DNA of 64,000 nucleotides, taken from contig JADHWK010000002.1 in assembly GCA_016783505.1 (NCBI GenBank), positions 27,154 through 91,153 on the forward strand. Reading direction: 5' to 3'. The notes below the pieces were generated by a model, which searched no databases, was not told the origin of the DNA, and worked only from the letters and a program-made list of their open reading frames with translations. Positions 1-60,780 of this stretch are shown here, in pieces. The position numbers were made by a program, and so were the translations under genes. Position 1 is the first letter of the stretch. Each line of letters opens with the position of its first letter. Source of the DNA: Candidatus Zhuqueibacterota bacterium (GTDB taxonomy: Bacteria; BS750m-G25).

Positions 1-2
1 TA

Positions 3-992
3 TTAAAAACAAAGGGGAATGTATCATTTCAATCAGCGCTGGGAATTATCTCTCCCGGTTTTGATACAAATGATCTGGGATTTAGCTGGTTTACAAATGT
101 GATCAATATGCATGTTGTTGGAGGATATAGCTGGTTCCAACCCACTAATTGGTTCAGAAGATCCAGTATTAATTTGATGATTTCAAGAAATTATGATTTC
201 GACGGGAATAAATTGTTTCAACAGTACTATTTTACGGGACATATTACCTTTCTTAATTACTGGGGCATTCATTCGTCCCTACAAATCACCCCGGATGGAT
301 TGGATTTATTTGATACCCGGGGTGGACCGGCTATTGCATATCACGGATATCAGTATATGAACCTGGGATTTTATTCAGACGACAGAAAAAAAGTGAGGGT
401 TTATGGAAGTATGAGTTATCGGGCTGTGAATGATGGGGCATATAGTAGAGATTTTGATATTGATTTTGTTTATAATCCCTCCCCTTCAATAAAGTTGACC
501 CTTTCCGCAAACCTTTACAAAGAACTTGACCATCAGCAATGGGTGGATAACATTGCCGATTCCTCTGCGGTTTCTACTTATGATACAAAATATATTTTTT
601 CAGATTTAGACGAAACAATAAGATCGGGCACAATCCGACTGGATTGGGGATTCACGCCCAGACTATCATTTCAAATGTATATTCAGCCCTATATTGCAGT
701 GGGACATTACTCTCATTTCAAGGAATTAATGGAGGGGGGCACCTATCATTTTAAAGAATATGATTATCAGGAATCTAATCCGGATTTTAATTATAAATCT
801 TTCAAAGCGAATATGGTTTTACGTTGGGAATATCGTCCCGGCTCTTTGATCTATTTGGTATGGACACAAAACCGGGAAAATGATGACAGACCCGGAGTTT
901 ATAATTTAAAGGATGATATCCAATCTCTTAGGGATGAAGATTCTGACAACATATTCCTGGTTAAATTAAACTATTTATTCACTGTTCGTTGA
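3..992 (+). CDS. C-terminal part of a DUF5916-family protein (runs off the left edge)
   Basis: The frame is open from the first complete codon, so the start lies left of the window; about 329 residues are visible. Near the edge the protein reads ISPGFDTNDLGF, a hallmark of the DUF5916 domain. Alternating aromatic-rich strands follow (YMNLGFYS, LRWEYRPGSLIYLVW), and the chain ends in VKLNYLFTVR, like the closing strand of an outer-membrane barrel. Family knowledge: DUF5916 proteins of Bacteroidetes-like bacteria are large, secreted or outer-membrane, often with an N-terminal carbohydrate-binding-like domain; their function is not established. No terminator is obvious before the next relic gene. 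Confidence 0.8.
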   Translation, partial: LKTKGNVSFQSALGIISPGFDTNDLGFSWFTNVINMHVVGGYSWFQPTNWFRRSSINLMISRNYDFDGNKLFQQYYFTGHITFLNYWGIHSSLQITPDGLDLFDTRGGPAIAYHGYQYMNLGFYSDDRKKVRVYGSMSYRAVNDGAYSRDFDIDFVYNPSPSIKLTLSANLYKELDHQQWVDNIADSSAVSTYDTKYIFSDLDETIRSGTIRLDWGFTPRLSFQMYIQPYIAVGHYSHFKELMEGGTYHFKEYDYQESNPDFNYKSFKANMVLRWEYRPGSLIYLVWTQNRENDDRPGVYNLKDDIQSLRDEDSDNIFLVKLNYLFTVR

Positions 993-1035
993 TGTTATTA
1001 ATAACCATCCCCATACAATTAAAGGATCACAATCC

Positions 1036-1473
1036 TTGATTCCAGTTCTTTTAACTTGTAACATGCTTACACACAAAATTAAAATGAATAAACAAACTTC
1101 AGCAAATGACATCCCCTCTGTAAACGAAACTTTTACCTTTATAATCCCTTATCATACCCTTCAAGTTACCCCTCAAGTCACCGAGCAAGTCACCGAGCAA
1201 GTCACCGAACAAGTCACCGAACAAGTCACCGGACAAGTCACCGGACAAGTCGAAATGATGGATAGAATTGCTTCCACGTTAAAACACTGTGAAACACCGA
1301 GGTCTCTAAGAGAGATCATGACGTTTTTAAAGCTGAAACATAGAGAGACCTTTATGGAAAAAGTGCTACATCCACTCTTAGAGAAAGGCTACTTAAGAAG
1401 GACAATCCCAGATAAACCGAGAAGTAGATTTCAGAGGTATGTAGCAGTAAAGGAAAAGAAAAATGAGCAATAA
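1036..1473 (+). pseudogene. C-terminal relic of a Schlafen/AlbA-type ATP-binding protein
   Basis: 145 residues. Residues about 43-73 are a QVTEQVTE-type repeat linker; the rest is a winged-helix domain ending in KGYLRRTIPDKPRSRFQRY. This linker plus wHTH with a TIPDKP motif is what I know from the C-terminus of AlbA_2/Schlafen-like putative ATP-binding or transcriptional regulator proteins (also some Fic proteins). The catalytic or DNA-binding N-terminal part, normally several hundred residues, is absent and no upstream frame supplies it, so I read this as a 5'-truncated gene. It overlaps the start of an HsdS relic at 1463. It could also be a short free-standing wHTH protein. Confidence 0.6.
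1162..1251 (+). repeat. 12-bp in-frame tandem repeat, about seven units
   Basis: Units of CAAGTCACCGAR follow one another with few substitutions and stay in frame, encoding the repeated QVTE/QVTG linker of the relic gene. Such linkers are typical of this protein family, so the repeat is coding and not a CRISPR or satellite. Confidence 0.9.
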
Positions 1474-1591
1474 TCCAAAACCCGGCTACAAACTCACCGA
1501 ACTAGGTGAAATACCAGAAGAGTGGCAAGTGGTAAGGTTTGGGGAGGTCATTTTGGTAAAACTCAGGTATAAAGGAGTCAATAATAGATAA
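1463..1591 (+). pseudogene. N-terminal relic of a type I restriction specificity subunit (HsdS), copy 1
   Basis: An ATG inside the end of the previous frame begins a 42-codon frame that reads YKLTELGEIPEEWQVVRFGEV, which is the canonical start of the first target-recognition domain of HsdS proteins. A stop follows after VILVKLRYKGVNNR, whereas a complete HsdS is about 400 residues. The region after it is occupied by an ORF6N gene, a common companion of hsdS loci. Not functional as a specificity subunit. Confidence 0.75.
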
Positions 1592-1598
1592 TCAAGCA

Positions 1599-2105
1599 AT
1601 GGTTCCAATAGAAATAATTGAGAAGCGAATTTATTTGCTCCGTGGAAAGAAGGTTATGATTGATTCGCATTTGGCAGAATTATATGGAGTAGAAACAAAA
1701 CAATTAAAAAGACAAGTTAGAAGAAATGTAGAAAGATTTCCTGATGATTTCATGTTTGAGTTAACACAAGAAGAATATCAGGATTTTTTAAGGCGCCAAT
1801 TTGGCACCTTAAAGAGAGGCAAATATTCAAAATATATTCCATACGCATTCACAGAACAGGGTATAGCTATGCTTTCCAGTGTGCTGAATAGCAAACGAGC
1901 TATACAGGTTAATATCCAGGTTATGCGAGCTTTTGTAAAACTCCGTGAGATGCTTACTACACACAAAGAACTTGCTCGCAAATTAGAACAATTGGAAAAG
2001 AAATATGATGCACAGTTCAAAATAGTATTTGATGCAATCCACCAGCTTATGGCACCACCCAAAAAGCCACACCGAAAGATTGGGTTTCATAGAGAGGGGA
2101 AATAA
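1599..2105 (+). CDS. ORF6N domain-containing DNA-binding protein
   Basis: 168 residues. Residues about 8-92 form an ORF6N domain (EKRIYLLRGKKVMIDSHLAELYGV, then TKQLKRQVRRNVERFP and the AFTEQGIAMLSSVL motif), the phage-type DNA-binding module; residues about 120-150 are a short coiled coil. Free-standing ORF6N proteins of this size are often found between hsd genes of type I restriction systems and in mobile regions; their exact role is unknown. The ATG is chosen because the domain begins directly behind it; no good ribosome-binding site sits at the usual distance. Its stop overlaps the ATG of a second HsdS relic (TAATG). Confidence 0.85.
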   Translation: MVPIEIIEKRIYLLRGKKVMIDSHLAELYGVETKQLKRQVRRNVERFPDDFMFELTQEEYQDFLRRQFGTLKRGKYSKYIPYAFTEQGIAMLSSVLNSKRAIQVNIQVMRAFVKLREMLTTHKELARKLEQLEKKYDAQFKIVFDAIHQLMAPPKKPHRKIGFHREGK

Positions 2106-2173
2106 TGAATAAATACAATAAGTTTAAACAAACAAAAATCGGCGAAATACCTGAGGAGTGGAAGAATGTTTGA
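2105..2173 (+). pseudogene. N-terminal relic of HsdS, copy 2
   Basis: The ATG shares a base with the ORF6N stop. The 22-residue frame reads FKQTKIGEIPEEWKNV before a stop, again matching the first residues of an HsdS protein. The TAATG coupling shows that ORF6N and hsdS were once one operon here. Confidence 0.65.
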
Positions 2174-2220
2174 ACCAAATTTCCGCTACAGTCATAAGAT
2201 TGTTAAAAATCTCACGCTAA

Positions 2221-2451
2221 TTAAGCAAAGATATCAAGATTCTTAAAGAGAGGGGACAAATTGCATTAACTGAGAGGCAGATGAAGATTGTGGAATGGAT
2301 ATTACAAAATGGCAAGATAACAAATAAAGATGTAAGAGAGATGTTTAAAATTTCAGATCGAGCAGCCTTGAAGGAAATAAGAAAATTGGTGGATTCAGAA
2401 GTGGTTAAATCAGAAGGTAAAGGAAGAAGCCTGTATTATATTCTGGAATAA
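2221..2451 (+). pseudogene. Winged-helix C-terminal relic of an AlbA/Fic-type protein
   Basis: The frame is open from a stop at 2218-2220. It reads TERQMKIVEWILQNGKITNK and then VREMFKISDRAALKEIRKLV and KSEGKGRSLYYILE, a winged helix with the C-terminal signature of Schlafen-like or Fic regulators. The only ATG, at 2281, would give 56 residues. No N-terminal domain is present, so it is a gene fragment. Confidence 0.6.
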
Positions 2452-2461
2452 TGCGGTATAT

Positions 2462-2509
2462 GGTTCGGGATTAGGTTCGGGATTAGGTTGGCGATTAGGT
2501 TGGCGATTA
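2462..2509 (+). repeat. 12-bp tandem repeat, four units
   Basis: GGTTCGGGATTA occurs twice, directly followed by GGTTGGCGATTA twice. Translated, it gives a GSGLGSGLGWRLGWRL-like linker, the kind found before the winged helix in AlbA-type proteins, so it is probably debris of the same decayed gene family. Confidence 0.85.
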
Positions 2510-2555
2510 CTAGTTGGGAAAGACAAAAATTAACAATAGCCTAAGCCCTGACTAA

Positions 2556-2684
2556 AAACTCACCGAATTTGGAAAGACACCAGAAGAGTGGTTAGGCTGG
2601 GTGATATACTTTCATTTAAGGGTTGCCAAAAAGAAGAGACCCAAAAATATAAACCAACTAAGAGATCGTGAAACATGCCAATAA
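2556..2684 (+). pseudogene. Frameshifted N-terminal relic of HsdS, copy 3
   Basis: After an in-frame stop the sequence reads KLTEFGKTPEEWLGWVIYF. Shifting the frame at the tryptophan codon restores VRLGDILSFKGCQKEE, which is how an HsdS protein continues after the PEEW motif. Two frames are needed to rebuild about 30 residues, so this is a decayed copy. Confidence 0.6.
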
Positions 2685-2717
2685 GGGATGTTATTCAAAA
2701 TGCTTCGCTTATACATA

Positions 2718-2737
2718 GTTATCTGACATTGCCCGCC
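2718..2737 (-). repeat. Inverted copy of the 20-bp motif found at 7479-7498
   Basis: The reverse complement reads GGCGGGCAATGTCAGATAAC and matches GGCGGGCAACATCAGATAAC at 7479-7498 in 18 of 20 positions. The two copies bracket the sacsin-like gene. The rest of 2685-2906 shows no gene. Confidence 0.7.
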
Positions 2738-2906
2738 CTGGAAAGTTGATGTCAATGAAAACTGATAAAGAAATATCTCCAAATGTTAGCATCCACCACC
2801 GAATTAAAGCTACTAGAAGCGTGGGTATGTGCCACTGGGAGGTACAAAACAAAAGAACATATAATAAGAGAAATGTTTTATCAAATCTGGAATACTCGGG
2901 GGTGAG

Positions 2907-5900
2907 ATGATGGCCATTAAAATCAAATGGGACCACGAATTTATTAAACAAGTTGCAGCTCAAAATGAGAAATATAAAGATGATCCACTAGTAGAAAAAT
3001 TAACGGATTTTATTGCTAAGAGTGTCTACTCATCCCCATCTCATTTTGCATTAGAAATGATCCAAAATGCTGACGACGAAAAATCTACTGAGATAAAATT
3101 TTATTTTGAAAAGAATAATAAAATCATAGTTACTAATAATGGTAAAAAATTTTCAAAAGATGATGTCAGGACAATTTGTTACGCAGGGCATAGCCTAAAG
3201 AAAAACAAAAAGGGATTTTTCGGAATAGGATTTAAATCGGTTAAAAGGATAACAGATACTCCTCAAATTATATCTAGCAATTACAATTTCGTTATCCATA
3301 AATATTATCACCCAGAACCATGCAAAGAGATCCCAGAAGATATAACATTCAACCCTCAAAAAGGTGCAATTTTTATTTTGCCTTTGAAATCTAAAAAAGA
3401 ATATAACAACATTTTCAAAAATTTTATGGAAGAAACCAATGAGAATCTATTATTGTTTCTTGATTATATTAAGAAAATTTATATTATCGACAGGAGGAAA
3501 AAAGAAGAAAAGACTCATGTTTTGTCTTATGACCGTAAATATGGAATTTTAGAAAATTCATATACGGGTAATAAATCGTTTTGGAAAGTATTTAAGAAGA
3601 TAATCTATGTACCCAAACGTATTCGTAAACCAATGGGAAAAGAAAGGGTAAGAAAAACTGAGATGGCTTTAGCATTTCCAGCAGATATAAAGGATACCCC
3701 AGATCCCCAAAAACTATTTTGTTATCTGCCGACAGAGCGTTTCACCGGTTACCCCTTTATAGTTCAGGGCGACTTTTTACCCATATTAGGCAGGAGCAAC
3801 ATAGACGAAGAAGATCCTTGGAATAAACACCTATTAAACCAATTGTCAGAATTAATTGCAGACGCCTTTGAAAATCTAAGAAACTATCCCAATTTTAGAT
3901 TGCGAATACTTTCATTTCTTCCACTAAAGGAAGAATGTCATGATGAGTTATTTATTAAGTATATAGACGCTATCTATACGGAATTAAAGAACAGAGAGAT
4001 TGCATTCACACGAGATATATGTTTTAAAAAACCGACAGATTCTATCGATCTTTCCCGCGATCTATGGGAGCTCTTTAGCAATGATGATTTACAAGAGATT
4101 TACAAAAATGAAAAATTTGTGATATCGGACGGGTATAATGACCATGAAAGGAAGATTTTATCTCTGTTGGGCATGGAAACGTTCGGATTAGATAATATAA
4201 TCTCATTCTTCAAAAATAATAAGGGTATAAGGAAGAAAGTTGTGGATCCAAATTGGTTTGTTTCTATTTATGCATACATAAATGACGATTTTGACGACTA
4301 TGAGAAAGATGATTTGAGGAATGTTCCATTTCTCTTATCTGAAACAGAGGAGCTTATTTACTCAGAAGATCCAAAAAAAATGGATAAACCAAGGCTAATT
4401 GCCAATCAGTATATGAACAAGGAAACCTCATTTTTTTCTGAATTGTTCAATAAAGATAAACTAATATTCCTCCATAAGAGATTTAGAATATCTAGAAATC
4501 AAAAGAAGAATAAAAATTACGATCGCCGACTCGATAAGGTTCATCAGTTATTTGAATTTCTTGGTGTAATTAGAATGGTTGAGGCGCATCATATTATTAC
4601 ACAACTCATATTACCAAAATTTCAGGAAACGCGAAACGGGAAACGTCTAGGTCATAAAAAAGCCATTTTATTCACAAATTTTATTCTTGAAAATTTGTCA
4701 TATTACCGTAAAATATACGGAAGCCGTACAAAAACTGATGATTGGGAAATTTTCTCAGACATTAGGTCAAAAATCCTAGTACTTGCAGAAAAGAGGGATT
4801 CTACTAGTAAGAAAAGATATGTCTTTTTATCCCCAACGGAGGTTTATAGACGTGGTGAGGGAAAGAAACTACTCCCTGAAAAATATTTTAGGGGTTTGAC
4901 TGAGGTACCATTTATCTCCAGAAAATATTTTTCCAAAAAGATCTTAGGTAGTTTTACTAGCATACCGATTACGCAAGCAAGTAAAAGACGTAAGATATAT
5001 TCTTGGGATGCTTTCTTCCATTTGATGGGGGGTTGGGAAATCCCAAGAGTAATACCAATTAGTCGGAGTTATTCTCGATACGACTCAAGACTAAAAGATG
5101 ATTTCCCAAATGTCGATTGGGACTATGAATATGATTCTACAACAGGATACGAAATTAAAGATTGGATAATGCCAGAGTTAACTGATACCATTCGAAAGTA
5201 CATCAACACAAAGGTTAAAGTTGAAAAAGACCGATTGAAACATCGGTTAGTTTATATTAGAGAAAGCGTTGCAAAAAATTGGAAAAAATACAAAGATTAT
5301 AAAAAAGCAGAAGCCTCATATTTTTATTATTCAGATGGGGATATCAAAGTAGGTTCAACTTTTTATCAACAGCTAAAAAAACCTTGGTTTCCAAGATCTA
5401 CCGACGGAAAATTAATAATACCTTCAAAAAATTACAAAGATACAATTGATAATAGATATTTAGCGCCCAAAGGCTCTGATTTTATAGATATACCCCCAGG
5501 GTCGAAAGAATTTTATAAGGAAATAGGGGTAATTGAAGATCCTGATCCAAAGGATGTGCTTGAAAGATTGCAGAAGATAAAAGCACATTGGGATAAAGTT
5601 AACAAGATACCCCTAGATAGCTTTAAGAAAATGGAGGCTTATTATAAGTATTTAGTTGATAAAAGTAAAACAAATCCTGATTTAAAAGATGCAATCGAAA
5701 GTATATTTTCAAAAAAGTATGTAATATTTCTTCCTACAAAAGTCCGTGGTAAAACGAAAATATGGTGGCATAGAGACCAAGTATTTGCAATAGAAACTTT
5801 GGATCATTCCCTTACACCATTTTTTCAATCGTTATTTCAGGAAGGAGCATACAGCATAGAACTAGAAGAGACATTTATTTCCCTAGGCGTTAGAATTAGT

Positions 5901-7421
5901 CCGAGCTTTAGAGACTACAAAGAAACCTTTCAACACATTATGAAGGAGTGGGGAAAAGCCTCAACAAACAAAAGATTGGAACTTAAGGGAAAAATTAGTT
6001 ATGCTTTAGAAGGGCTAAGTACATTGATCGAAAGCGAATCGGTAGACGATGATGAAAAAATTAGGAAACTATTCGATGAAAATATTTTCTTAACCGATCA
6101 GAATGAATTTTTAACACCCAATGAAATATATTTGAAAGACGATTACGAAATCTATGAGGTATTTCAAGATTGTATTCCCACATTGTGGTACAACGGTGAA
6201 ATAGCATCTATTTCATCATCATTGATAAGGATAGGTTTCAACTCGTTAAAAGATTATAAAGACAAAAGAAAAGCAAGGTTTATTGATAAAGAATTTATTC
6301 ATAAAGATGATCTTCCAAAAATGATAGAATTTTGTGAAGTTATTGAGGCCTTCATAGAAAATAGATTCAGTACATTATATGATAAGCAAAGGGAGAATAT
6401 CGCTAGATCTAAAGATTTACAAATTTATACAGCAAAAAATATAAAAGTTACTTACTTCTTAGAGGGCAAAAAGCGAATAAAAAATAATGTGCCCATTTAC
6501 TTATCGAAAAATGAACTTGTGATATCTACCGCCGAAAACGATCCATGGTTAGAAGTAATCAGAGATGACTTTTCAAAATGTTTGTCCTCAATTTTTGGAG
6601 ATTTAGGTCCTCATTTGAGACCTTTGATCAATGATTTGCATCAAAACCCAGAAGACATTAACGTTGTCATTCAAAAGTGGGGGTTAGAAAGGGGACGTGT
6701 ATTTAAAAAATATGTTGAGGAGGAAAGCCAAGTAATCAAGATGCCTTTGGCTCAAGCGAAAAAAGAACTTGAGACCTTTGGAGAAGAGGTCGAAGAAGAA
6801 CCAATAACCCAAGTAGTTGATATCACAACCACACCAACCCAAACACCACAACCCAAGAGCAAGGATGAGGAAGTTTTCCCGTTAGAAACAATCAACGGTT
6901 TTATTATAAAAAACATTAAAACAGGCGAAGTGACTACATTACCACTCAAAAGAAGAAAGATAAGAAAAAGTAAATTGCCAAAAAAGAAGGGAATTTCTAA
7001 AACTTATACCCCATTTTCATCTCAAATGACGGAGGATATAGCTGTAGAAATCGTAAAAAAGTTTGAAGAATCTCAAGATCGAGTGGATATAAAAGATGTG
7101 AGAGATGATGAAGATGAGGGTTGTGACTTAATTTCATCTGGGAGGGGTGGGAATCGTCTGATAGAAATAAAAGCTTCCAAGGGTAAAAGACCGCAAATTA
7201 AACTTCGGCCATCTCAATATAAAAGAGCAAAACAAGATAAAGAGAAGTATTACATTTACAAAGTAGAAAACATAGAGAAAGGAAAATTACCACATATCGA
7301 AATAGTTCAGAATCCGATAGAGAATCCAAAGATTAGAATTGTTCATTTAGGAGAAGTTAAAATAGAAGGATGGGAAAACTCGGATAAAATCTCAATCGAT
7401 GTAAGGATTGAAGAAAATTAG
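2907..7421 (+). CDS. Giant sacsin/Nov-type HSP90-like ATPase with C-terminal DUF3883-type nuclease domain
   Basis: 1504 residues. The N-terminus is a GHKL (HSP90-like) ATPase of the sacsin/Nov type: N-box E50-MIQN54-ADD, a G1-like box VTNNGKKF at 75-82 and G2 box GFFGIGFKSV at 103-112. Residues about 1365-1490 resemble DUF3883, a PD-(D/E)XK-like domain: D-E-G-C-D around 1402-1405, IEIKAS around 1419-1424, and the family's LRPSQYKRAKQ segment. The long middle is all-alpha and unassigned. Family knowledge: sacsin-like ATPases joined to nuclease domains cluster in defence islands. Context: restriction relics directly upstream and base composition more A+T-rich than the flanking backbone. GGGGGTGAG precedes two adjacent ATGs; the second, at 2910, leaves better spacing. 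No partner gene is seen, so it may act alone. A defence role is inference. Confidence 0.8.
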   Translation: MMAIKIKWDHEFIKQVAAQNEKYKDDPLVEKLTDFIAKSVYSSPSHFALEMIQNADDEKSTEIKFYFEKNNKIIVTNNGKKFSKDDVRTICYAGHSLKKNKKGFFGIGFKSVKRITDTPQIISSNYNFVIHKYYHPEPCKEIPEDITFNPQKGAIFILPLKSKKEYNNIFKNFMEETNENLLLFLDYIKKIYIIDRRKKEEKTHVLSYDRKYGILENSYTGNKSFWKVFKKIIYVPKRIRKPMGKERVRKTEMALAFPADIKDTPDPQKLFCYLPTERFTGYPFIVQGDFLPILGRSNIDEEDPWNKHLLNQLSELIADAFENLRNYPNFRLRILSFLPLKEECHDELFIKYIDAIYTELKNREIAFTRDICFKKPTDSIDLSRDLWELFSNDDLQEIYKNEKFVISDGYNDHERKILSLLGMETFGLDNIISFFKNNKGIRKKVVDPNWFVSIYAYINDDFDDYEKDDLRNVPFLLSETEELIYSEDPKKMDKPRLIANQYMNKETSFFSELFNKDKLIFLHKRFRISRNQKKNKNYDRRLDKVHQLFEFLGVIRMVEAHHIITQLILPKFQETRNGKRLGHKKAILFTNFILENLSYYRKIYGSRTKTDDWEIFSDIRSKILVLAEKRDSTSKKRYVFLSPTEVYRRGEGKKLLPEKYFRGLTEVPFISRKYFSKKILGSFTSIPITQASKRRKIYSWDAFFHLMGGWEIPRVIPISRSYSRYDSRLKDDFPNVDWDYEYDSTTGYEIKDWIMPELTDTIRKYINTKVKVEKDRLKHRLVYIRESVAKNWKKYKDYKKAEASYFYYSDGDIKVGSTFYQQLKKPWFPRSTDGKLIIPSKNYKDTIDNRYLAPKGSDFIDIPPGSKEFYKEIGVIEDPDPKDVLERLQKIKAHWDKVNKIPLDSFKKMEAYYKYLVDKSKTNPDLKDAIESIFSKKYVIFLPTKVRGKTKIWWHRDQVFAIETLDHSLTPFFQSLFQEGAYSIELEETFISLGVRISPSFRDYKETFQHIMKEWGKASTNKRLELKGKISYALEGLSTLIESESVDDDEKIRKLFDENIFLTDQNEFLTPNEIYLKDDYEIYEVFQDCIPTLWYNGEIASISSSLIRIGFNSLKDYKDKRKARFIDKEFIHKDDLPKMIEFCEVIEAFIENRFSTLYDKQRENIARSKDLQIYTAKNIKVTYFLEGKKRIKNNVPIYLSKNELVISTAENDPWLEVIRDDFSKCLSSIFGDLGPHLRPLINDLHQNPEDINVVIQKWGLERGRVFKKYVEEESQVIKMPLAQAKKELETFGEEVEEEPITQVVDITTTPTQTPQPKSKDEEVFPLETINGFIIKNIKTGEVTTLPLKRRKIRKSKLPKKKGISKTYTPFSSQMTEDIAVEIVKKFEESQDRVDIKDVRDDEDEGCDLISSGRGGNRLIEIKASKGKRPQIKLRPSQYKRAKQDKEKYYIYKVENIEKGKLPHIEIVQNPIENPKIRIVHLGEVKIEGWENSDKISIDVRIEEN

Positions 7422-7478
7422 CAAATAATAAACACACAATCCGAAAGAAATATTTGCACCTCCCACATATAACCGAGA

Positions 7479-7590
7479 GGCGGGCAACATCAGATAACAC
7501 AGCATATACACTTCGGGCTTACGCCTTTGCCCTTTGGGACATTTTGCTATCGCAAAACGTCGTATATGCTGGAAACGTCATACGCCATGC
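7479..7590 (+). repeat. Structured palindromic element, integron attC-like
   Basis: After GGCGGGCAACATCAGATAAC comes AGCATATAC (7501-7509), matched by GTATATGCT (7562-7570). An inner hairpin TTTTGC-TATC-GCAAAA lies between. ATAAC on the left and a decayed GTCAT on the right stand where the outer cores of an attC site would be. The element lies just downstream of the sacsin-like gene, as the recombination site of a cassette would. The 7422-7787 gap otherwise shows no credible gene. Confidence 0.4.
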
Positions 7591-7787
7591 AGTGCCTGAA
7601 AAAGAATAAGGAGACTTATAGAGAAAAAAAGCCGAACAGCAAGTTAAAGAGACTGGCTTTCAGAAATGGCGTCATCCAGGTGGTAAACTTAGGGAACTTG
7701 GTATTGAGTCAATTTTAAATAATAAAACCCGAATAAATTCAAAGCGTCTACTTTGGTCAGAAATTACAAAATAAAAGGAGGTTTAAA

Positions 7788-46751: not shown

Positions 46752-47651
46752 CTATTTAAAAACTATTTTCCTAAGTGCTTCTTTTAGCTCATCTACCCTT
46801 TTTGAAATTTTCCCCTTGTTATACTTTCCGTCTTTAATTTCAGGTTCCTTGTCTGATATATAAACTATTTGAGGATCTCCACCCACATAATCATCAATTT
46901 CTTCCCTTATCCAATAAATACAAGCTGCTATTCGAGAGACTATCACTTTACATTCAAGGGGAATTTTACCGTTATGCCGAGGAAAAAGATATTTCGCTAG
47001 TGTTCTGGCATAATCCCTTCCATGTCCAACTAAACAGGCATATTTAATTTTCGACCCAAATCCACGGGGGCCAATTTCGTATAATCTCGCATCTCCTTTG
47101 CTTAGTTCAGATAAACCCCCCAATATAAAGTGTAAAGGGTATTCTCCAATTTTGGGCCCGTATCTTTCTTCGGTTTTCTCTACCAAGTCCTCCGCTATCA
47201 TTTTGATTGAAAGTAAAGAATTAATTTTCCCCTCTTGAATGTTTGCTATCAATGTTTTTTCAAATATTTCTATGAAATCATCTATTACCCCTATTATTCC
47301 AGCACTGGCAAATATAATAGGAGCTCCTTCCACAGTAGTAATAGTTTTTACTTTCTTTTCATAATCAGTCTCTCCGCCCCTCATTGTTTTTGTATCTCCC
47401 CCAAGAACAATTCCATCTTTTCCTCTCACTCCTATTATTAGAGTAGACTTTCCCAGCATGTCCTCACCCAGCATTTTCTTATATAACCACCTCTTATATT
47501 TTTCCTTATTAGCTTCATTTAGTTCATCCAAAAGTTGAATTTCTTTTGGATATGCTATTTTAGGAAAAATCTTCTCTAATCCTTCTATCTCTTTCTTGAT
47601 TTTCTTCTTTCCCCCAGCATAATTACCAACATCCATCTTCCGCAATTCCAT
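46752..47651 (-). CDS. Stand-alone proteasome beta-type Ntn hydrolase with long propeptide
   Basis: 299 residues from ATG 47651, which has GGGGGAGAG before it; an ATG seven codons earlier lies in that site. Residues 1-69 are a basic, helical propeptide. The hydrolase begins at T70 (KS-TLIIGVRGKDGIVLGGD) and the catalytic set matches archaeal beta subunits: Thr1=T70, Asp17=D86, Lys33=K102, spaced exactly 16 and 16. Later GIIGVIDDFIEIFEKTL and HFILGGLSELSKGDARLYEI fit the fold. No alpha subunit, HslU or Mpa ATPase is nearby. It may form a self-compartmentalised peptidase like Anbu; target unknown. A repeat-block promoter lies at 47873-47901. Confidence 0.78.
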   Translation of the reverse strand: MELRKMDVGNYAGGKKKIKKEIEGLEKIFPKIAYPKEIQLLDELNEANKEKYKRWLYKKMLGEDMLGKSTLIIGVRGKDGIVLGGDTKTMRGGETDYEKKVKTITTVEGAPIIFASAGIIGVIDDFIEIFEKTLIANIQEGKINSLLSIKMIAEDLVEKTEERYGPKIGEYPLHFILGGLSELSKGDARLYEIGPRGFGSKIKYACLVGHGRDYARTLAKYLFPRHNGKIPLECKVIVSRIAACIYWIREEIDDYVGGDPQIVYISDKEPEIKDGKYNKGKISKRVDELKEALRKIVFK

Positions 47652-47872
47652 TCTCTCTCCCCCTTCTTTCATTTATAATTATCTATATCTATATTTCTAG
47701 GCTTTATTCAAATTCCCATTTGCTAATTTCAGATCATCCCAATCAAAAAATAAATAATTCCAGGCTTTTCTAAATCATATGGCAAAAACCAGACCAATTT
47801 TAAGTGTAGCTGGATCGCTATTTTTGAATGAACTAAAGGGCAAGTTTTGCCTGGCATGTTTTGAACGAATTC

Positions 47873-55439: not shown

Positions 55440-58400
55440 TCATAATACATCTTCCAAATTTATTGCTTTGAAATTTTTAGTATCTTCGGATGCAATCTCT
55501 GATAATTTTTGTCGAAATAGATCAAAAAAATCGAAATTACAAGTAGTAATAATAATTTGTTTTCTGGCTCGAGAAAGACCTATAATAATGTCAACAAAAG
55601 ATAATGTATTCATTTCATCCATTTGTTGTACGGGATCATCAATTAGAATGGTTTGAAGAATTGATATGTTTTGATATATTACTCTGGTTAAAAATATTGA
55701 TAAGGCTAGAATATTTAACTGTGCTTCACTCAAATAAGAAGAAGGTGTATACTCAATTTCACCAAAATAATTCTTAAGTAATATATATAAACTTCTTTTT
55801 CTTTGATCCTTAGACATTATTGGTTTCAATTGAACTTCATTAAAATATTCATGTCGGATAAATTTTTTATATATTTCATTGATTAAAGGGCTATATTGGA
55901 CTAAGCTTTTTTTAAATGCAGAATAGGATACAGACGATAACTCTTTATTTAACTTTCTGAGATTATTATAACAAATTTCCCATCTTTTCTTCTCGTAACT
56001 ATATTTTTCTATTCTGTTTCGAATATTCTCTGATTCTTCTTTTGTTCTAATCAGCCCAAAGAGATTGTTCAGATCTTTTATTTTTGAAATTAATTTATAA
56101 TATTTTTCTTGATCATATACATCTATTTTTAAAGGATCAATACCATCCTTAATAGAATATTTATCTGAAAGATTATATCTCTGTATTAAAGATTCCATCT
56201 CTACTAGATCTTTCTCAATTTCATCAATCCTTTGTTGTAAGATAACCTTATATTTTAGTTGTTCTTCTAGTTCTTCTAATTCATCTTTATATTCTTTTAG
56301 ATCAGTCTCTATTTGGTTTATTTCATTATCAATATTATCAATATTTAAAATTTTATCTTCAGGAATAACCTTAATTATTTCTTCTATTATATTTGATATT
56401 GTATCTCTAGTTTCTTTGTGTTTATTTTTGTAATATTCATAATTTAGATAATGAATTTTATCAACTATTAATTCTGTTTCATTTCTAATAGATTCGACAT
56501 CATATTTTTTTATTTCATTTTTTAATTCTAGTAATTGGGAATTAGATTTATCAAGCAGTGTTTTTATTTCTTCCTCGGTAATTGATTTCTTTTTACAAAC
56601 TTTATTTAACAGTTCTTCAAATTCAATTATATCATTTTTCATATCAGAATTTTCTTTTTCTAATTTTTCCCTTTCCTCTTTTTTGCGCTGAATTATATTT
56701 TTTTCTTCTTCTATTGCTAATTTTTTATATTTTTTGTTTATATTAAAGATAAAATCTTTTAGTTCTTCTCTATATTTTCCATCAGTAATTTGTTTAATTA
56801 TGTTCTCATTTAACTCATTTTTATCACTATAAGAATTCCCACAACATGGACATACAAATTTATCCATTACGTTAAAGTAATCTGTTTTATTTATAATATT
56901 TTTTATAACATCAATATCATTATAATCTATGTCCTCAGATTGAATCAAACCTTTAATTTCATTCTCATGACGATCTAAATAAAAGTCGATTTCCGAAATT
57001 ATTTTACTATTTTTACTCAATAGTATTTTTTTTACTTCAATTTCTTTCAGCCTCTTTTTGATATATAGGAAATTCTCTATATTAGCTACTAAATCATTAA
57101 TTTTCCTACTTAAATCAATTTTACTTTTTTTAAATTCAATCAATTTTTCCTCGAGTAGTTCTTTCTTTTTAAGTAAGGCTTCATTCTCTTTTCTTTTTAT
57201 TTCAATTTTTTCTCTTAAATCTTTTTCTTTTGAATATAAGTCTTTAAACTCATTAAACCTTGTCTTGAAATCATTCAATATTCTATTATTTTCATTTAGT
57301 TCTTTCATTTTACCATTTAATACTTCAATTTTATATTTATTATGCTCAATAGTTCTAATCTCATTTTTTATGCTACTTTGAACGTTTTCTATATAATAAA
57401 GAAAATTATCTGCTTCAATATTAATATTTAGACTACTTAATATGCTACTTATTTTTATGTATAATTGATTCAATTTATTAATTGCTCCTTCATGTGTCTT
57501 TTTCTTTTCTAATTCATTATTCAATATTTTCATTAAAAGATCACAAGAAATCATATAGTTATCAATAGGTAATTGACAATCCGTTATACTCTCATCTAAC
57601 TTTATTCTAATTTCATTTTTTAATTTATCTATCAATTTTTTATATGCTATAATACCGTATTCTTGGTCTATCTTATGACCTTTTTTTTCAATCTCGGATC
57701 TAGTTCTTGGTCCATATTTATGACTAATACTCCTAATATTAGATTTATATTCTTTTATCAAATCATCTAAGAGATTAATTTTTATATGTTTAATTTCTGA
57801 ATATACTCTTGTCAATCGACGTTTTAAAGCTTCAATTTTTCCAAAACCAAACATTTCGGAAATTAAATCATATCTGTTTTTTCTTATCTCGTTTTCATCA
57901 CTTGTATTAACACCATATATAAAATGTCTAATAGAATGTTGCCCAAGGAAGTGTGTATGTAATAGTATATCCAAATATTCTTTCTTTTTTATTAATTCCT
58001 TATTATCAGTTAAGAAAGTTATAATATCCTCATTTTTAACTTGTTTGTTGTTTAAGAATAAAATGCATTTATTTTTTTGTATTTTTGTTTCAATTTTAAA
58101 TATATCATTCTTTGATATCCCTGTTATGTCTATTAGTGCTTCATCTTCCATTGATTCACAATTTATTAAGGCAGAGTATTTTTTCTTAGTTTTTGGTTCC
58201 ATGTCTGGATCATATTCCAGTCGGTTTATTTTATTAAATATTGAGAATTCAACAGCATCAACTATTGAAGTTTTACCTCTTCCATTTTTACCATAAATCA
58301 CTACTACATCACTATCTAAATCTAATTTTATACTTTTAAAGCATCGAAAATTTTTTAACTCTAAAGATTTTATTCTGCTTATTTCTACAGACAGTTCTTC

Positions 58401-59015
58401 TTTTATAGGTGATACTAATTTTTTTTGCTTTTGCAATTTATTTTTAAAGTCTTCAGAAAATAACCAGCTATATTTTTCACTTTTTTCTATCTCCTTAACG
58501 ATTGCCGGAGCTTTTTTTGAAATTAATAAGCTTCTAAGATCTCTATCAGATATAGTATCCTCTATTAAAGGGATATATTCTCTAAGAACTTTATTTTTAT
58601 CTGAAATCCAGACTGGTATTCTGTTAGCTAACGACTTTTCAATAATTTTTTTATTATACTTGTCAGGTAATTCAATAAATACTTTTCTGAAAAAATACTC
58701 ATTACTTTCAGCCAGAGATAATTCTTCAAATAAATCATTTTCCCGCACAACTTTTTCGGGAATTACATAGATAAGATATTGATTTATTTTATTTTTTTCC
58801 TTCAGATATAGTTCCCTTTGTAATCCAATCCACGATTTGATAAGTTCAATATTGTCTGTTATTTGGCAATATAATGAGCTGAATAAATTTTCAGCTTTGA
58901 ACAGTATATGATCGCTCTCTTCTTCCATTCTATACAGATTATACCCAAATCTTTTATCACGGCGGATGAAGTCTTCTGCTATATCACCAATTTTAGATAA
59001 ATTGAAAGCATTCAT
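55440..59015 (-). CDS. SMC/Rad50-type ATPase with ABC-3C middle-component-like N-terminus
   Basis: 1191 residues. Residues 1-215 form an extra domain (e.g. KINQYLIYVIPEKVVREN, EYFFRKVFIELPD) resembling ABC-three-component middle components. The ATPase starts with SLELKNFRCFKSIKLDL; Walker A GKNGRGKT is at 242-249. Long coiled coils flank a zinc-hook-like C722-P-C724-C725. Near the C-terminus come the ABC signature LSEAQLN, Walker B with TILIDDPVQQMDEM and the switch IIITTCNFDF. Rad50/RloC-like ATPases sense DNA ends or foreign DNA and activate effectors. The start overlaps the nitrilase-like gene by 23 bp, so both are translated together. Very A+T-rich compared with etfA. A defence role is inferred. 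Confidence 0.85.
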   Translation of the reverse strand: MNAFNLSKIGDIAEDFIRRDKRFGYNLYRMEEESDHILFKAENLFSSLYCQITDNIELIKSWIGLQRELYLKEKNKINQYLIYVIPEKVVRENDLFEELSLAESNEYFFRKVFIELPDKYNKKIIEKSLANRIPVWISDKNKVLREYIPLIEDTISDRDLRSLLISKKAPAIVKEIEKSEKYSWLFSEDFKNKLQKQKKLVSPIKEELSVEISRIKSLELKNFRCFKSIKLDLDSDVVVIYGKNGRGKTSIVDAVEFSIFNKINRLEYDPDMEPKTKKKYSALINCESMEDEALIDITGISKNDIFKIETKIQKNKCILFLNNKQVKNEDIITFLTDNKELIKKKEYLDILLHTHFLGQHSIRHFIYGVNTSDENEIRKNRYDLISEMFGFGKIEALKRRLTRVYSEIKHIKINLLDDLIKEYKSNIRSISHKYGPRTRSEIEKKGHKIDQEYGIIAYKKLIDKLKNEIRIKLDESITDCQLPIDNYMISCDLLMKILNNELEKKKTHEGAINKLNQLYIKISSILSSLNINIEADNFLYYIENVQSSIKNEIRTIEHNKYKIEVLNGKMKELNENNRILNDFKTRFNEFKDLYSKEKDLREKIEIKRKENEALLKKKELLEEKLIEFKKSKIDLSRKINDLVANIENFLYIKKRLKEIEVKKILLSKNSKIISEIDFYLDRHENEIKGLIQSEDIDYNDIDVIKNIINKTDYFNVMDKFVCPCCGNSYSDKNELNENIIKQITDGKYREELKDFIFNINKKYKKLAIEEEKNIIQRKKEEREKLEKENSDMKNDIIEFEELLNKVCKKKSITEEEIKTLLDKSNSQLLELKNEIKKYDVESIRNETELIVDKIHYLNYEYYKNKHKETRDTISNIIEEIIKVIPEDKILNIDNIDNEINQIETDLKEYKDELEELEEQLKYKVILQQRIDEIEKDLVEMESLIQRYNLSDKYSIKDGIDPLKIDVYDQEKYYKLISKIKDLNNLFGLIRTKEESENIRNRIEKYSYEKKRWEICYNNLRKLNKELSSVSYSAFKKSLVQYSPLINEIYKKFIRHEYFNEVQLKPIMSKDQRKRSLYILLKNYFGEIEYTPSSYLSEAQLNILALSIFLTRVIYQNISILQTILIDDPVQQMDEMNTLSFVDIIIGLSRARKQIIITTCNFDFFDLFRQKLSEIASEDTKNFKAINLEDVL

Positions 59016-60780
59016 TTAATGTCTCCTTTATATTATCAACTTTTTTATAGCTTTGGCGTGCATTTAATTTATTAATTAGATAGCAAAGAGTTAAAACATA
59101 TGGATATTTAGGCTTTGTTATTTTATTATAACTGTCGGGTCTTTTCATTGTCTTGACAATTTTATTAAGGTTTAAAAGTTCATTAAATCTTTTAGGTTCA
59201 CCGTTCCAATCCAAATATAAAGGACCTAATCTCTGTAATAGAACTATTTGCATATCTCTATACTGAGAAAGTAATAATTCACCTTTTTCTTGTCTAAATT
59301 GTAAGTCTTGCATATTATCACAATCAATTATAGAAATAAAAATATCATCGCTCTTAATCTTATTTTCTTCAATTTCAATACCTTCATAATTTGTATTAAG
59401 CATAGCAAGTGAAACAAAAAAATATTTAAAAGTTCCTTTGTCTTCGTCCCATAAGTCGCAATTAATAGCTCTTTTGTTTTCTTCTCGAATAAATAATAGG
59501 GTTCTAATGACTTCACATGGTCTTTGCATAAATAAATTACAAAACATATTTTCATACATTTCTATATTGCTGAAATATTGCCTTAAGAGATATTTAGAAA
59601 ATAATGTTTCTATAAAGTCAGAAAAATCATCCAATAAAATTTCTTTAAATTCATATATTTCTGGAATTTGTTTTATTTCTGTTAATTCAAAATTAGTATT
59701 AATCTTTTCTAAACCAGGTTCCTCTATGGGAATTACGTTTTCATCTTGAAATCGAAATGTTGTATCGTTCATGTTTAAAATAAATGATATCACGCCCGGA
59801 TATCTTAGTCTCCAAAGTATATACTGAAGGCTGTCTTGTTCTCCAGCTTCTTTTTTGAATGACTTCCAAGCAAACAAATTCTCTGCTCTCATATCCTTTA
59901 ATGTTTCAGGAAATCTACCTCTATTCATTACTGCGACATTTGAATTCCTAAAGTGTTTTACATCTTCTGTATCTACACTGTTTATAGAGCACACCATTGT
60001 TTTTGTAGTATCAATTGTATGACTCTTGAAGTAGAGACTTTTTATTATTTTAGTGTAGTGATTTCCAATTGGATGTTTATTGTTTTGAATTAAAAACATG
60101 AGATCAATTTTCTCATGTCTTGGATTTTTATAAAAATAGTCTAAATCTTTAAACAAAGTATATATTATAGGCAGTTTACCTCTTTCAAGTATGAAATCTG
60201 AACAGATTAAAATCAGTATAGTATATACGCCTAGGTTGAAAATATATATTATTTTGGAAATGAATTGTTGTGTTGTTTCATAACGACTTTTGCTTAATTT
60301 TGGTTGGTAATAAATATAATTTTTCCCATTTTTGTCTTTAATCAGAATCGCTGCAGTATTGACAAATTTAATATTTCTTCCAAAATCTACTTCGTTAAAA
60401 TCATCTTTACTATTTGAATTTGAAATTAATTCTAAAAATTGGTTTTTAGTTATTTGTTCTAAGCCAAAAATAATTATGGTATTTGTATTTATTTCTCCAT
60501 TTTTTAATTTCACAATCATTAATTCAGCTGCTTCCATACTTACTGAAAGTTCTGGAAATACTATAAAATTTGGATTACCTTCTGAAAATATATTATTATT
60601 ATATTTATTTAGTACATTTTCAACTATGTGAATATTATTTTGTTTTTCCTCTTCCTTAATTTTATAAATTCCATCTTTTTGACATTGTTCTGGCATTTGT
60701 ACTTTTACAATGCCAATTCGGTTTCTATTAAAATATTCAATATTTGGTATTTTGATGTCTTTTATCTTAAATTCATTCAT
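58993..60780 (-). CDS. Nitrilase-superfamily protein, first gene of the SMC operon
   Basis: 595 residues. The N-terminal 300 residues carry a complete nitrilase triad: E77 in NFIVFPELSVS, K161 in YYQPKLSKSRYE and C193 in LILICSDFILE. Nitrilases cut C-N bonds (amides, nitriles, also NAD-related substrates). The C-terminal half is helical and unassigned, perhaps for contact with the ATPase. Family knowledge: nitrilase domains occur as effectors in DRT1 (UG1) defence reverse transcriptases. Here it overlaps an SMC-like ATPase gene, so it is probably the effector enzyme that the ATPase controls. A+T-rich; no other gene in the operon. Confidence 0.8.
   Translation of the reverse strand: MNEFKIKDIKIPNIEYFNRNRIGIVKVQMPEQCQKDGIYKIKEEEKQNNIHIVENVLNKYNNNIFSEGNPNFIVFPELSVSMEAAELMIVKLKNGEINTNTIIIFGLEQITKNQFLELISNSNSKDDFNEVDFGRNIKFVNTAAILIKDKNGKNYIYYQPKLSKSRYETTQQFISKIIYIFNLGVYTILILICSDFILERGKLPIIYTLFKDLDYFYKNPRHEKIDLMFLIQNNKHPIGNHYTKIIKSLYFKSHTIDTTKTMVCSINSVDTEDVKHFRNSNVAVMNRGRFPETLKDMRAENLFAWKSFKKEAGEQDSLQYILWRLRYPGVISFILNMNDTTFRFQDENVIPIEEPGLEKINTNFELTEIKQIPEIYEFKEILLDDFSDFIETLFSKYLLRQYFSNIEMYENMFCNLFMQRPCEVIRTLLFIREENKRAINCDLWDEDKGTFKYFFVSLAMLNTNYEGIEIEENKIKSDDIFISIIDCDNMQDLQFRQEKGELLLSQYRDMQIVLLQRLGPLYLDWNGEPKRFNELLNLNKIVKTMKRPDSYNKITKPKYPYVLTLCYLINKLNARQSYKKVDNIKETLNECFQFI

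What the first reader, a model, noticed from the sequence alone, without database searches (positions are those of the whole stretch)
2907..7421. Lone 1504-residue sacsin-like ATPase with DUF3883-type nuclease tail
The N-terminal GHKL boxes and a C-terminal D-E-G-C-D...IEIKAS nuclease pattern are joined by more than 1000 uncharacterised residues. It is A+T-rich, sits behind restriction-system debris, and is bounded by inverted copies of a 20-bp motif. This could be a single-gene defence system in which ATPase-driven remodelling controls a nuclease.
Basis: partly seen in the sequence, partly recalled or inferred. Interest (0 to 1): 0.62.

Follow-up and report, generated by a model that had tools for sequence, protein, structure and literature searches.

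The report
Tiamat-type phage-defence ATPase–nuclease gene
The 1504-residue protein belongs to a known one-gene bacterial anti-virus system called Tiamat, built from an Hsp90/sacsin-like ATP-driven clamp, a repeat-built middle and a DNA-cutting tail; the added interest is that its relatives carry different kinds of DNA-cutting tail on the same body.

Summary
The ORF at 2907-7421 is real, 1504 aa, and conserved at protein level against a 58%-identical orthologue. It is a member of TmtA, the protein of the single-gene Tiamat anti-phage system (PADLOC 3.8e-93, nearly end to end): a known kind. Residues 25-206 model as a sacsin/Hsp90 ATPase domain (Z 16.4 to sacsin SR1), with an Hsp90-middle-like part to about 426. 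The 'uncharacterised' middle holds about five diverged copies of a ~110-residue repeat, scoring above all 120 shuffled controls. The tail (NOV_C/DUF3883) models as a PD-(D/E)xK nuclease; D1407, E1420 and K1422 are invariant in 18 of 18 tails. Relatives carry different nuclease tails on the same body: NOV_C, NucS_C or HNH-like. I infer an ATP-gated clamp that licenses a DNA nuclease; no activity was tested, and reviews list Tiamat's mechanism as unknown. The flanking 20-bp inverted motif exists, but its right copy is the edge of a dispersed palindromic repeat and it is not shown to mark the ends of an element. The upstream restriction-system debris is only partly confirmed. Membership is ordinary; the swappable tails and the repeats are the interesting part.

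The parts
2907..7421 (+). tmtA-like gene (Tiamat), 1504 aa
   Evidence: TmtA PDLC03972 3.8e-93, residues 11-1472 on profile 5-1286 of 1302; 58% identical orthologue
2979..3524 (+). residues 25-206: sacsin/Hsp90-type GHKL ATPase domain; motif I HFALEMIQNADD at 3042-3077, GFFGIGFKSV at 3213-3242
3525..4184 (+). residues 207-426: Hsp90-middle-like part (overlaps the first repeat unit)
3804..6236 (+). about five diverged ~110-residue repeat units: residues 300-420, 560-680, 770-880, 880-1000, 1000-1110 (limits chosen by eye)
6774..7031 (+). probably flexible linker, about residues 1290-1375
   Evidence: pLDDT mostly under 50 for residues 1330-1369; the rest of the span is inferred from sequence
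7032..7283 (+). residues 1376-1459: NOV_C/DUF3883 PD-(D/E)xK nuclease domain; D1407 (7125-7127), E1420 (7164-7166), K1422 (7170-7172)
2718..2737 (-). left copy of the 20-bp inverted motif
7479..7605 (+). right palindromic dispersed repeat; its first 20 bp (7479-7498) are the other motif copy
1036..2668 (+). upstream accessory genes and remnants: Fic-like C-terminal ORF 1036-1473, ORF6N/PDC-S05 ORF 1599-2105, winged-helix fragment 2221-2448, HsdS-like PEEW stretches

Best explanation
This is a Tiamat (TmtA) anti-phage protein. Inferred working order: the sacsin/Hsp90-type N-terminal domain binds and hydrolyses ATP and closes as a dimer clamp (inferred from GHKL enzymes). The repeat-built middle (about residues 300-1110) holds or senses the trigger, probably phage DNA or a phage protein (inferred). 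ATP-driven rearrangement then licenses the C-terminal PD-(D/E)xK domain to cut DNA, blocking the phage or killing the cell (inferred). Shown here: family membership, predicted ATPase and nuclease folds with their conserved motifs, the internal repeats, and the exchange of nuclease types on the same body. Not shown: phage protection, ATPase activity, DNA cutting, the trigger.
For: TmtA match over 11-1472 of 1504 residues, 3.8e-93. Sacsin/Hsp90 fold Z 16.4 with invariant GHKL residues. Tail models as a PD-(D/E)xK nuclease, Z 10.7 to a SPARDA nuclease and about 10 to archaeal Hjc, D/E/K invariant in 18/18. DUF3883 is called a novel REase domain in PMC3710099. Tail exchange: NOV_C in 9 relatives, NucS_C in 4, HNH-like in 5, of which 2 keep the HNH residues; the HNH label (three rows) needs 3 changes on the tree. 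A protein of the same plan, VcSduA (GHKL N-terminus, DUF4263 nuclease C-terminus), loses phage defence on either E27A or K557A (PMC12137116). Patchy spread: 18 of 386 genomes, 17 of 327 genera. Relatives lie beside restriction-modification genes (L056), Qat (L005, a short form), NERD helicases (L059, L079, L088) and HEPN-SNF2 helicases (L060, L061, L112).
Against: No activity test. TmtA models are broad: in plant metagenomes all Tiamat hits lay on plant contigs (PMC12409356). Some relatives sit next to housekeeping genes (L064 transketolase and a dehydrogenase, L093 NUDIX, L053 DUF3352), and so does this gene on its right. The 58% orthologue L049 ends before the nuclease domain, though its contig ends 82 nt later. 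The tail's Foldseek E-values are weak (best 0.012).
Confidence: 0.68

Rival explanations
1. A restriction-like enzyme that tells self from non-self DNA by modification. The GHKL clamp loops or remodels DNA as proposed for MORC/paraMORC proteins, and the nuclease cuts unmodified (or foreign-modified) DNA, with the methyltransferase supplied by the host or lost.
For: In one NucS-tailed lineage a C5 DNA methyltransferase starts about 9 bp after the stop codon (L062 8.6e-70, L109 2.7e-69). L056 lies beside type II restriction and methylase genes. GHKL-helicase-nuclease operons of restriction systems are described in PMC2292703. HsdS-like remnants lie upstream here.
Against: L062 and L109 are close relatives, so this is one lineage. 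L064 and L093, in the same clade, do not have it next to them. No methyltransferase lies next to the window gene; the nearest genes are ORF6N and a C1 peptidase.
Confidence: 0.15
2. A nucleic-acid or chaperone housekeeping protein in the manner of plant NO VEIN or sacsin, not a defence gene: the ATPase works as a chaperone and the tail binds or trims nucleic acid in repair.
For: The best solved relative is sacsin, a chaperone-like protein; the tail family is named after plant NO VEIN; Tiamat models ring on plant sequences (PMC12409356).
Against: Patchy distribution, 18 of 386 genomes; deviant GC3; recurrent exchange of nuclease tails and defence-type neighbours in several relatives are not what a core function gives.
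Confidence: 0.1
3. A decayed or silent relic: the gene is left over in a degraded restriction and mobile-element patch and is no longer selected.
For: Broken HsdS-like and winged-helix fragments next to it; the closest orthologue lacks the tail.
Against: The 1504-codon frame is open; substitutions against the 58% orthologue fall mostly on third positions (373/293/767); GHKL and nuclease residues are intact.
Confidence: 0.05

Closest known systems
Tiamat (TmtA), PADLOC PDLC03972; system of Millman et al. 2022 (paper not held; attribution from memory)
   Same: End-to-end profile match, one gene, N-terminal GHKL domain, tail region covered by the profile
   Different: No tested difference; reviews held list the mechanism as unknown
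VcSduA, a GHKL-bearing Shedu protein (PMC12137116)
   Same: N-terminal GHKL ATPase and C-terminal PD-(D/E)xK nuclease in one protein; both active sites needed for defence
   Different: Its nuclease is DUF4263, not NOV_C/DUF3883 (no DUF4263 hit here); it is far shorter (catalytic lysine at residue 557)
MORC/paraMORC GHKL proteins of restriction systems (PMC2292703)
   Same: GHKL ATPases tied to nucleases and helicases in restriction-type operons
   Different: The window protein ranks closer to sacsin than to MORC2 (Z 16.4 against 12.3) and is a single gene
Sacsin
   Same: Best match of the ATPase domain by sequence and fold
   Different: Only one SACS stretch found; no DnaJ or HEPN domain; nuclease tail instead
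Plant NO VEIN (from memory; not compared here)
   Same: Shares the NOV_C domain name; plant sequences ring on Tiamat models
   Different: A eukaryotic developmental protein; no comparison was run

Membership tests
Tiamat (TmtA) | Near full-length match to a TmtA profile | tested here: met
   3.8e-93, residues 11-1472, profile 5-1286 of 1302; genome search 1.2e-92
Tiamat (TmtA) | N-terminal GHKL-type ATPase domain with intact motifs | tested here: met
Tiamat (TmtA) | Single gene, no obligatory partner | tested here: met
   no co-directional ORF abutting it; nearest larger genes are 800 bp upstream and 366 bp downstream and unrelated in function
Tiamat (TmtA) | Protects against phage | not testable with these tools
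   needs a plaque assay
PD-(D/E)xK nuclease (NOV_C/DUF3883) | D...(D/E)xK catalytic residues and fold | tested here: met
   D1407, E1420, K1422 invariant in 18/18; fold Z about 10 to Hjc and SPARDA nucleases
Shedu (SduA) | DUF4263 nuclease domain | tested here: not met
   Pfam scan gives NOV_C, no DUF4263
Sacsin | Several sacsin repeating regions with DnaJ and HEPN domains | tested here: not met
   one SACS stretch, no DnaJ or HEPN hit
Type I restriction-modification locus | Complete hsdR, hsdM and hsdS genes around it | tested here: not met
   only short HsdS-like stretches; no hsdM- or hsdR-sized ORF from 1 to 7787 other than the gene itself

The most novel reading that the evidence does not exclude
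Tiamat is a modular platform: one sacsin-like ATPase and repeat scaffold fitted with interchangeable DNA-cutting tails (NOV_C, NucS, HNH), and in some lineages joined to a DNA methyltransferase, or to a HEPN-helicase where the tail is degenerate. Its mechanism would then be ATP-gated DNA cleavage with the effector swapped in evolution.
Probability: 0.5. Interest if true: 0.55.

Novelty: new member of a known kind. Interest (0 to 1): 0.36.

Why it matters
Tiamat is listed as a system of unknown mechanism in the reviews held. The nuclease fold, the invariant catalytic residues and the tail swaps turn that into a concrete, testable proposal (an ATP-gated DNA nuclease) and name the point mutations to try.

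Tried and rejected
Single-protein scans of genome and viral contigs found no relative; the alignment query did. Sequence search of the PDB with the tail profile gave only chance rows. Integron hypothesis for the flanking repeat: it is palindromic and attC-like in shape, and the C82 copy lies near a broken tyrosine recombinase, but the integron-integrase family stayed below its cut-off, rang in all 14 control genomes, and the two copies at the gene are inverted; not pursued. Neighbour enrichment: 117 neighbours of 18 long-form homologues hit 199 PADLOC families at 1e-15, against 95 for 118 control proteins, and up to 5 members per family against 1. The tool counts families, not proteins, and the control comes from partly different genomes, so I use this only as a hint. 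L049's stop before the tail looked like a possible insertion; its last 85 bases had no match in the host genome, left open. Phage records hold only one weak, partial match. Shedu, sacsin and type I restriction membership were rejected by test (see membership table).

Full report
1. Observation. The ORF at 2907-7421 is present as described: ATG start, 1504 residues. It carries a sacsin-type ATPase domain (Pfam SACS 1.3e-13, NCBIfam P_loop_sacsin 1.9e-19) and a C-terminal NOV_C/DUF3883 domain (7.8e-9). Against a 58%-identical orthologue from candidate division CSSED10-310 (L049) third-position changes dominate (373/293/767 at positions 1/2/3) and dN is 0.32 with dS saturated, so the protein is under constraint. 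The gene has GC 0.329 and GC3 0.291 against GC 0.489 for the 14-42 kb stretch.

2. What it is. PADLOC identifies it as TmtA, the protein of the single-gene Tiamat system, at 3.8e-93 over 11-1472 of 1504 residues, which includes the nuclease tail; eight TmtA models match. I know Tiamat as a system of Millman et al. 2022 from memory; that paper is not held. Later papers name Tiamat as an anti-phage system of unknown mechanism (PMC12926258, PMC10482375). Caution: TmtA models also ring on plant proteins (PMC12409356), so the profile match alone does not prove defence.

3. Anatomy. A model of residues 1-1200 from 21 sequences (mean pLDDT 78.6, pTM 0.49) matches sacsin SR1 best (Z 16.4, 181 residues aligned) and Hsp90 N-terminal plus middle domains over residues 25-426 (Z 12-13). 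GHKL residues E50, N54, D57, G103, G106 and G108 are invariant in the 20 long-form sequences aligned. The middle is not featureless. Profile comparison of its segments shows about five diverged copies of a unit of some 110 residues, helices plus a beta hairpin (300-420, 560-680, 770-880, 880-1000, 1000-1110). The six pair scores computed against shuffles run from 25.7 to 43.9, against a best of 19.7 in 120 column-shuffled controls. I chose the segment limits by eye, so boundaries and copy number are approximate.

4. The tail. A model of residues 1330-1504 (mean pLDDT 71.8; block means 78-95 over residues 1370-1479) matches PD-(D/E)xK nucleases: SPARDA nuclease Z 10.7, archaeal Hjc about 10, and lower DpnI, RecU and VRR_NUC. 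Foldseek E-values alone are weak (best 0.012). D1407, E1420 and K1422 are invariant in 18 aligned NOV_C tails. PMC3710099 calls DUF3883 a novel REase domain.

5. Tail exchange. Among long-form homologues the tail is NOV_C in L050, L052, L053, L056, L057, L059, L067, L079 and L088; NucS_C in L062, L064, L093 and L109; and HNH-like in L054, L055, L060, L061 and L112. The HNH calls are weak by Pfam (below cut-off in three, no hit in two) and rest on the aligned CQIC...LC..H pattern, with the AHH motif intact in L054 and L055 and degenerate in L060, L061 and L112. On a maximum-likelihood tree of the bodies the NucS tail forms one clade, whereas the HNH label (three rows) needs 3 changes, and NOV_C and HNH tails mix inside one well-supported clade. 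In that tree L061 and L112 were still labelled 'none'; relabelling them HNH would lower the count, but the mixing of NOV_C with HNH in the other clade stays. The degenerate-HNH proteins have an upstream HEPN_Swt1-SNF2 helicase partner.

6. Context. Relatives lie by restriction-modification genes (L056), Qat (L005, a short form), NERD helicases (L059, L079, L088), and in one NucS-tailed lineage a C5 DNA methyltransferase (L062, L109); others have housekeeping neighbours (L053, L064, L093). TmtA occurs in 18 of 386 genomes sampled across the domain, in 17 of 327 genera. In the window, the gene sits in a 6.8-kb A+T-rich stretch between a DUF5916 gene and a C1-peptidase gene, with ORF6N, Fic-like and HsdS-like remnants on its left. 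A Lamassu-like LmuA/LmuB pair lies 48 kb away at 55440-60780.

7. Flanking repeat. The 20-bp inverted pair is real and occurs only here in the assembly; 2 of 1000 simulations of the two flanks did as well. The right copy is the start of a palindromic repeat related to copies on contigs C82 and C53. I do not read the pair as the ends of a mobile unit.

8. Mechanism. Best supported: an ATP-gated clamp that licenses a DNA nuclease. The closest experimental precedent is VcSduA, where both the GHKL glutamate and the nuclease lysine are needed (PMC12137116). The trigger, the substrate and the outcome (phage DNA cutting or cell death) are inferred.

9. Verdict. New member of a known kind. The tail exchange and the repeat-built middle are the new information; I did not find them stated for Tiamat in the passages read, but the founding paper was not available.

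Noticed in passing
window 55440-60780 (-): Two-gene set matching LmuB (6e-64) and LmuA (1.4e-23), a Lamassu-like defence pair, GC about 0.25 and GC3 under 0.2.
   Followed up: partly
window 7479-7605; G000 C82:10377-10443; C53:9869-9956: Low-copy palindromic intergenic repeat, attC-like in shape; the C82 copy lies about 1.5 kb from a broken tyrosine recombinase.
   Followed up: partly
L049 4211-4295: The 58% orthologue stops just before the linker and nuclease tail and its contig ends 82 nt later; truncation, insertion or assembly break not resolved.
   Followed up: partly
L060, L061, L112: TmtA relatives with degenerate HNH-like tails are preceded by a HEPN_Swt1-SNF2 helicase gene, as if the nuclease role had moved to the partner.
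   Followed up: partly
L062 14363-15337; L109 4589-5560: C5 cytosine DNA methyltransferase directly downstream of NucS-tailed TmtA relatives (one Poribacteria lineage).
   Followed up: yes
L004, L006, L007, L031, L033, L034: A ~1040-residue short form of the family often sits behind a ~1050-1200-residue gene (annotated helicase-related in L004, L006, L007); probably a different, two-gene system.
   Followed up: no
window 46752-47672 (-): Proteasome-subunit-like protein (Pfam 2.6e-11).
   Followed up: no
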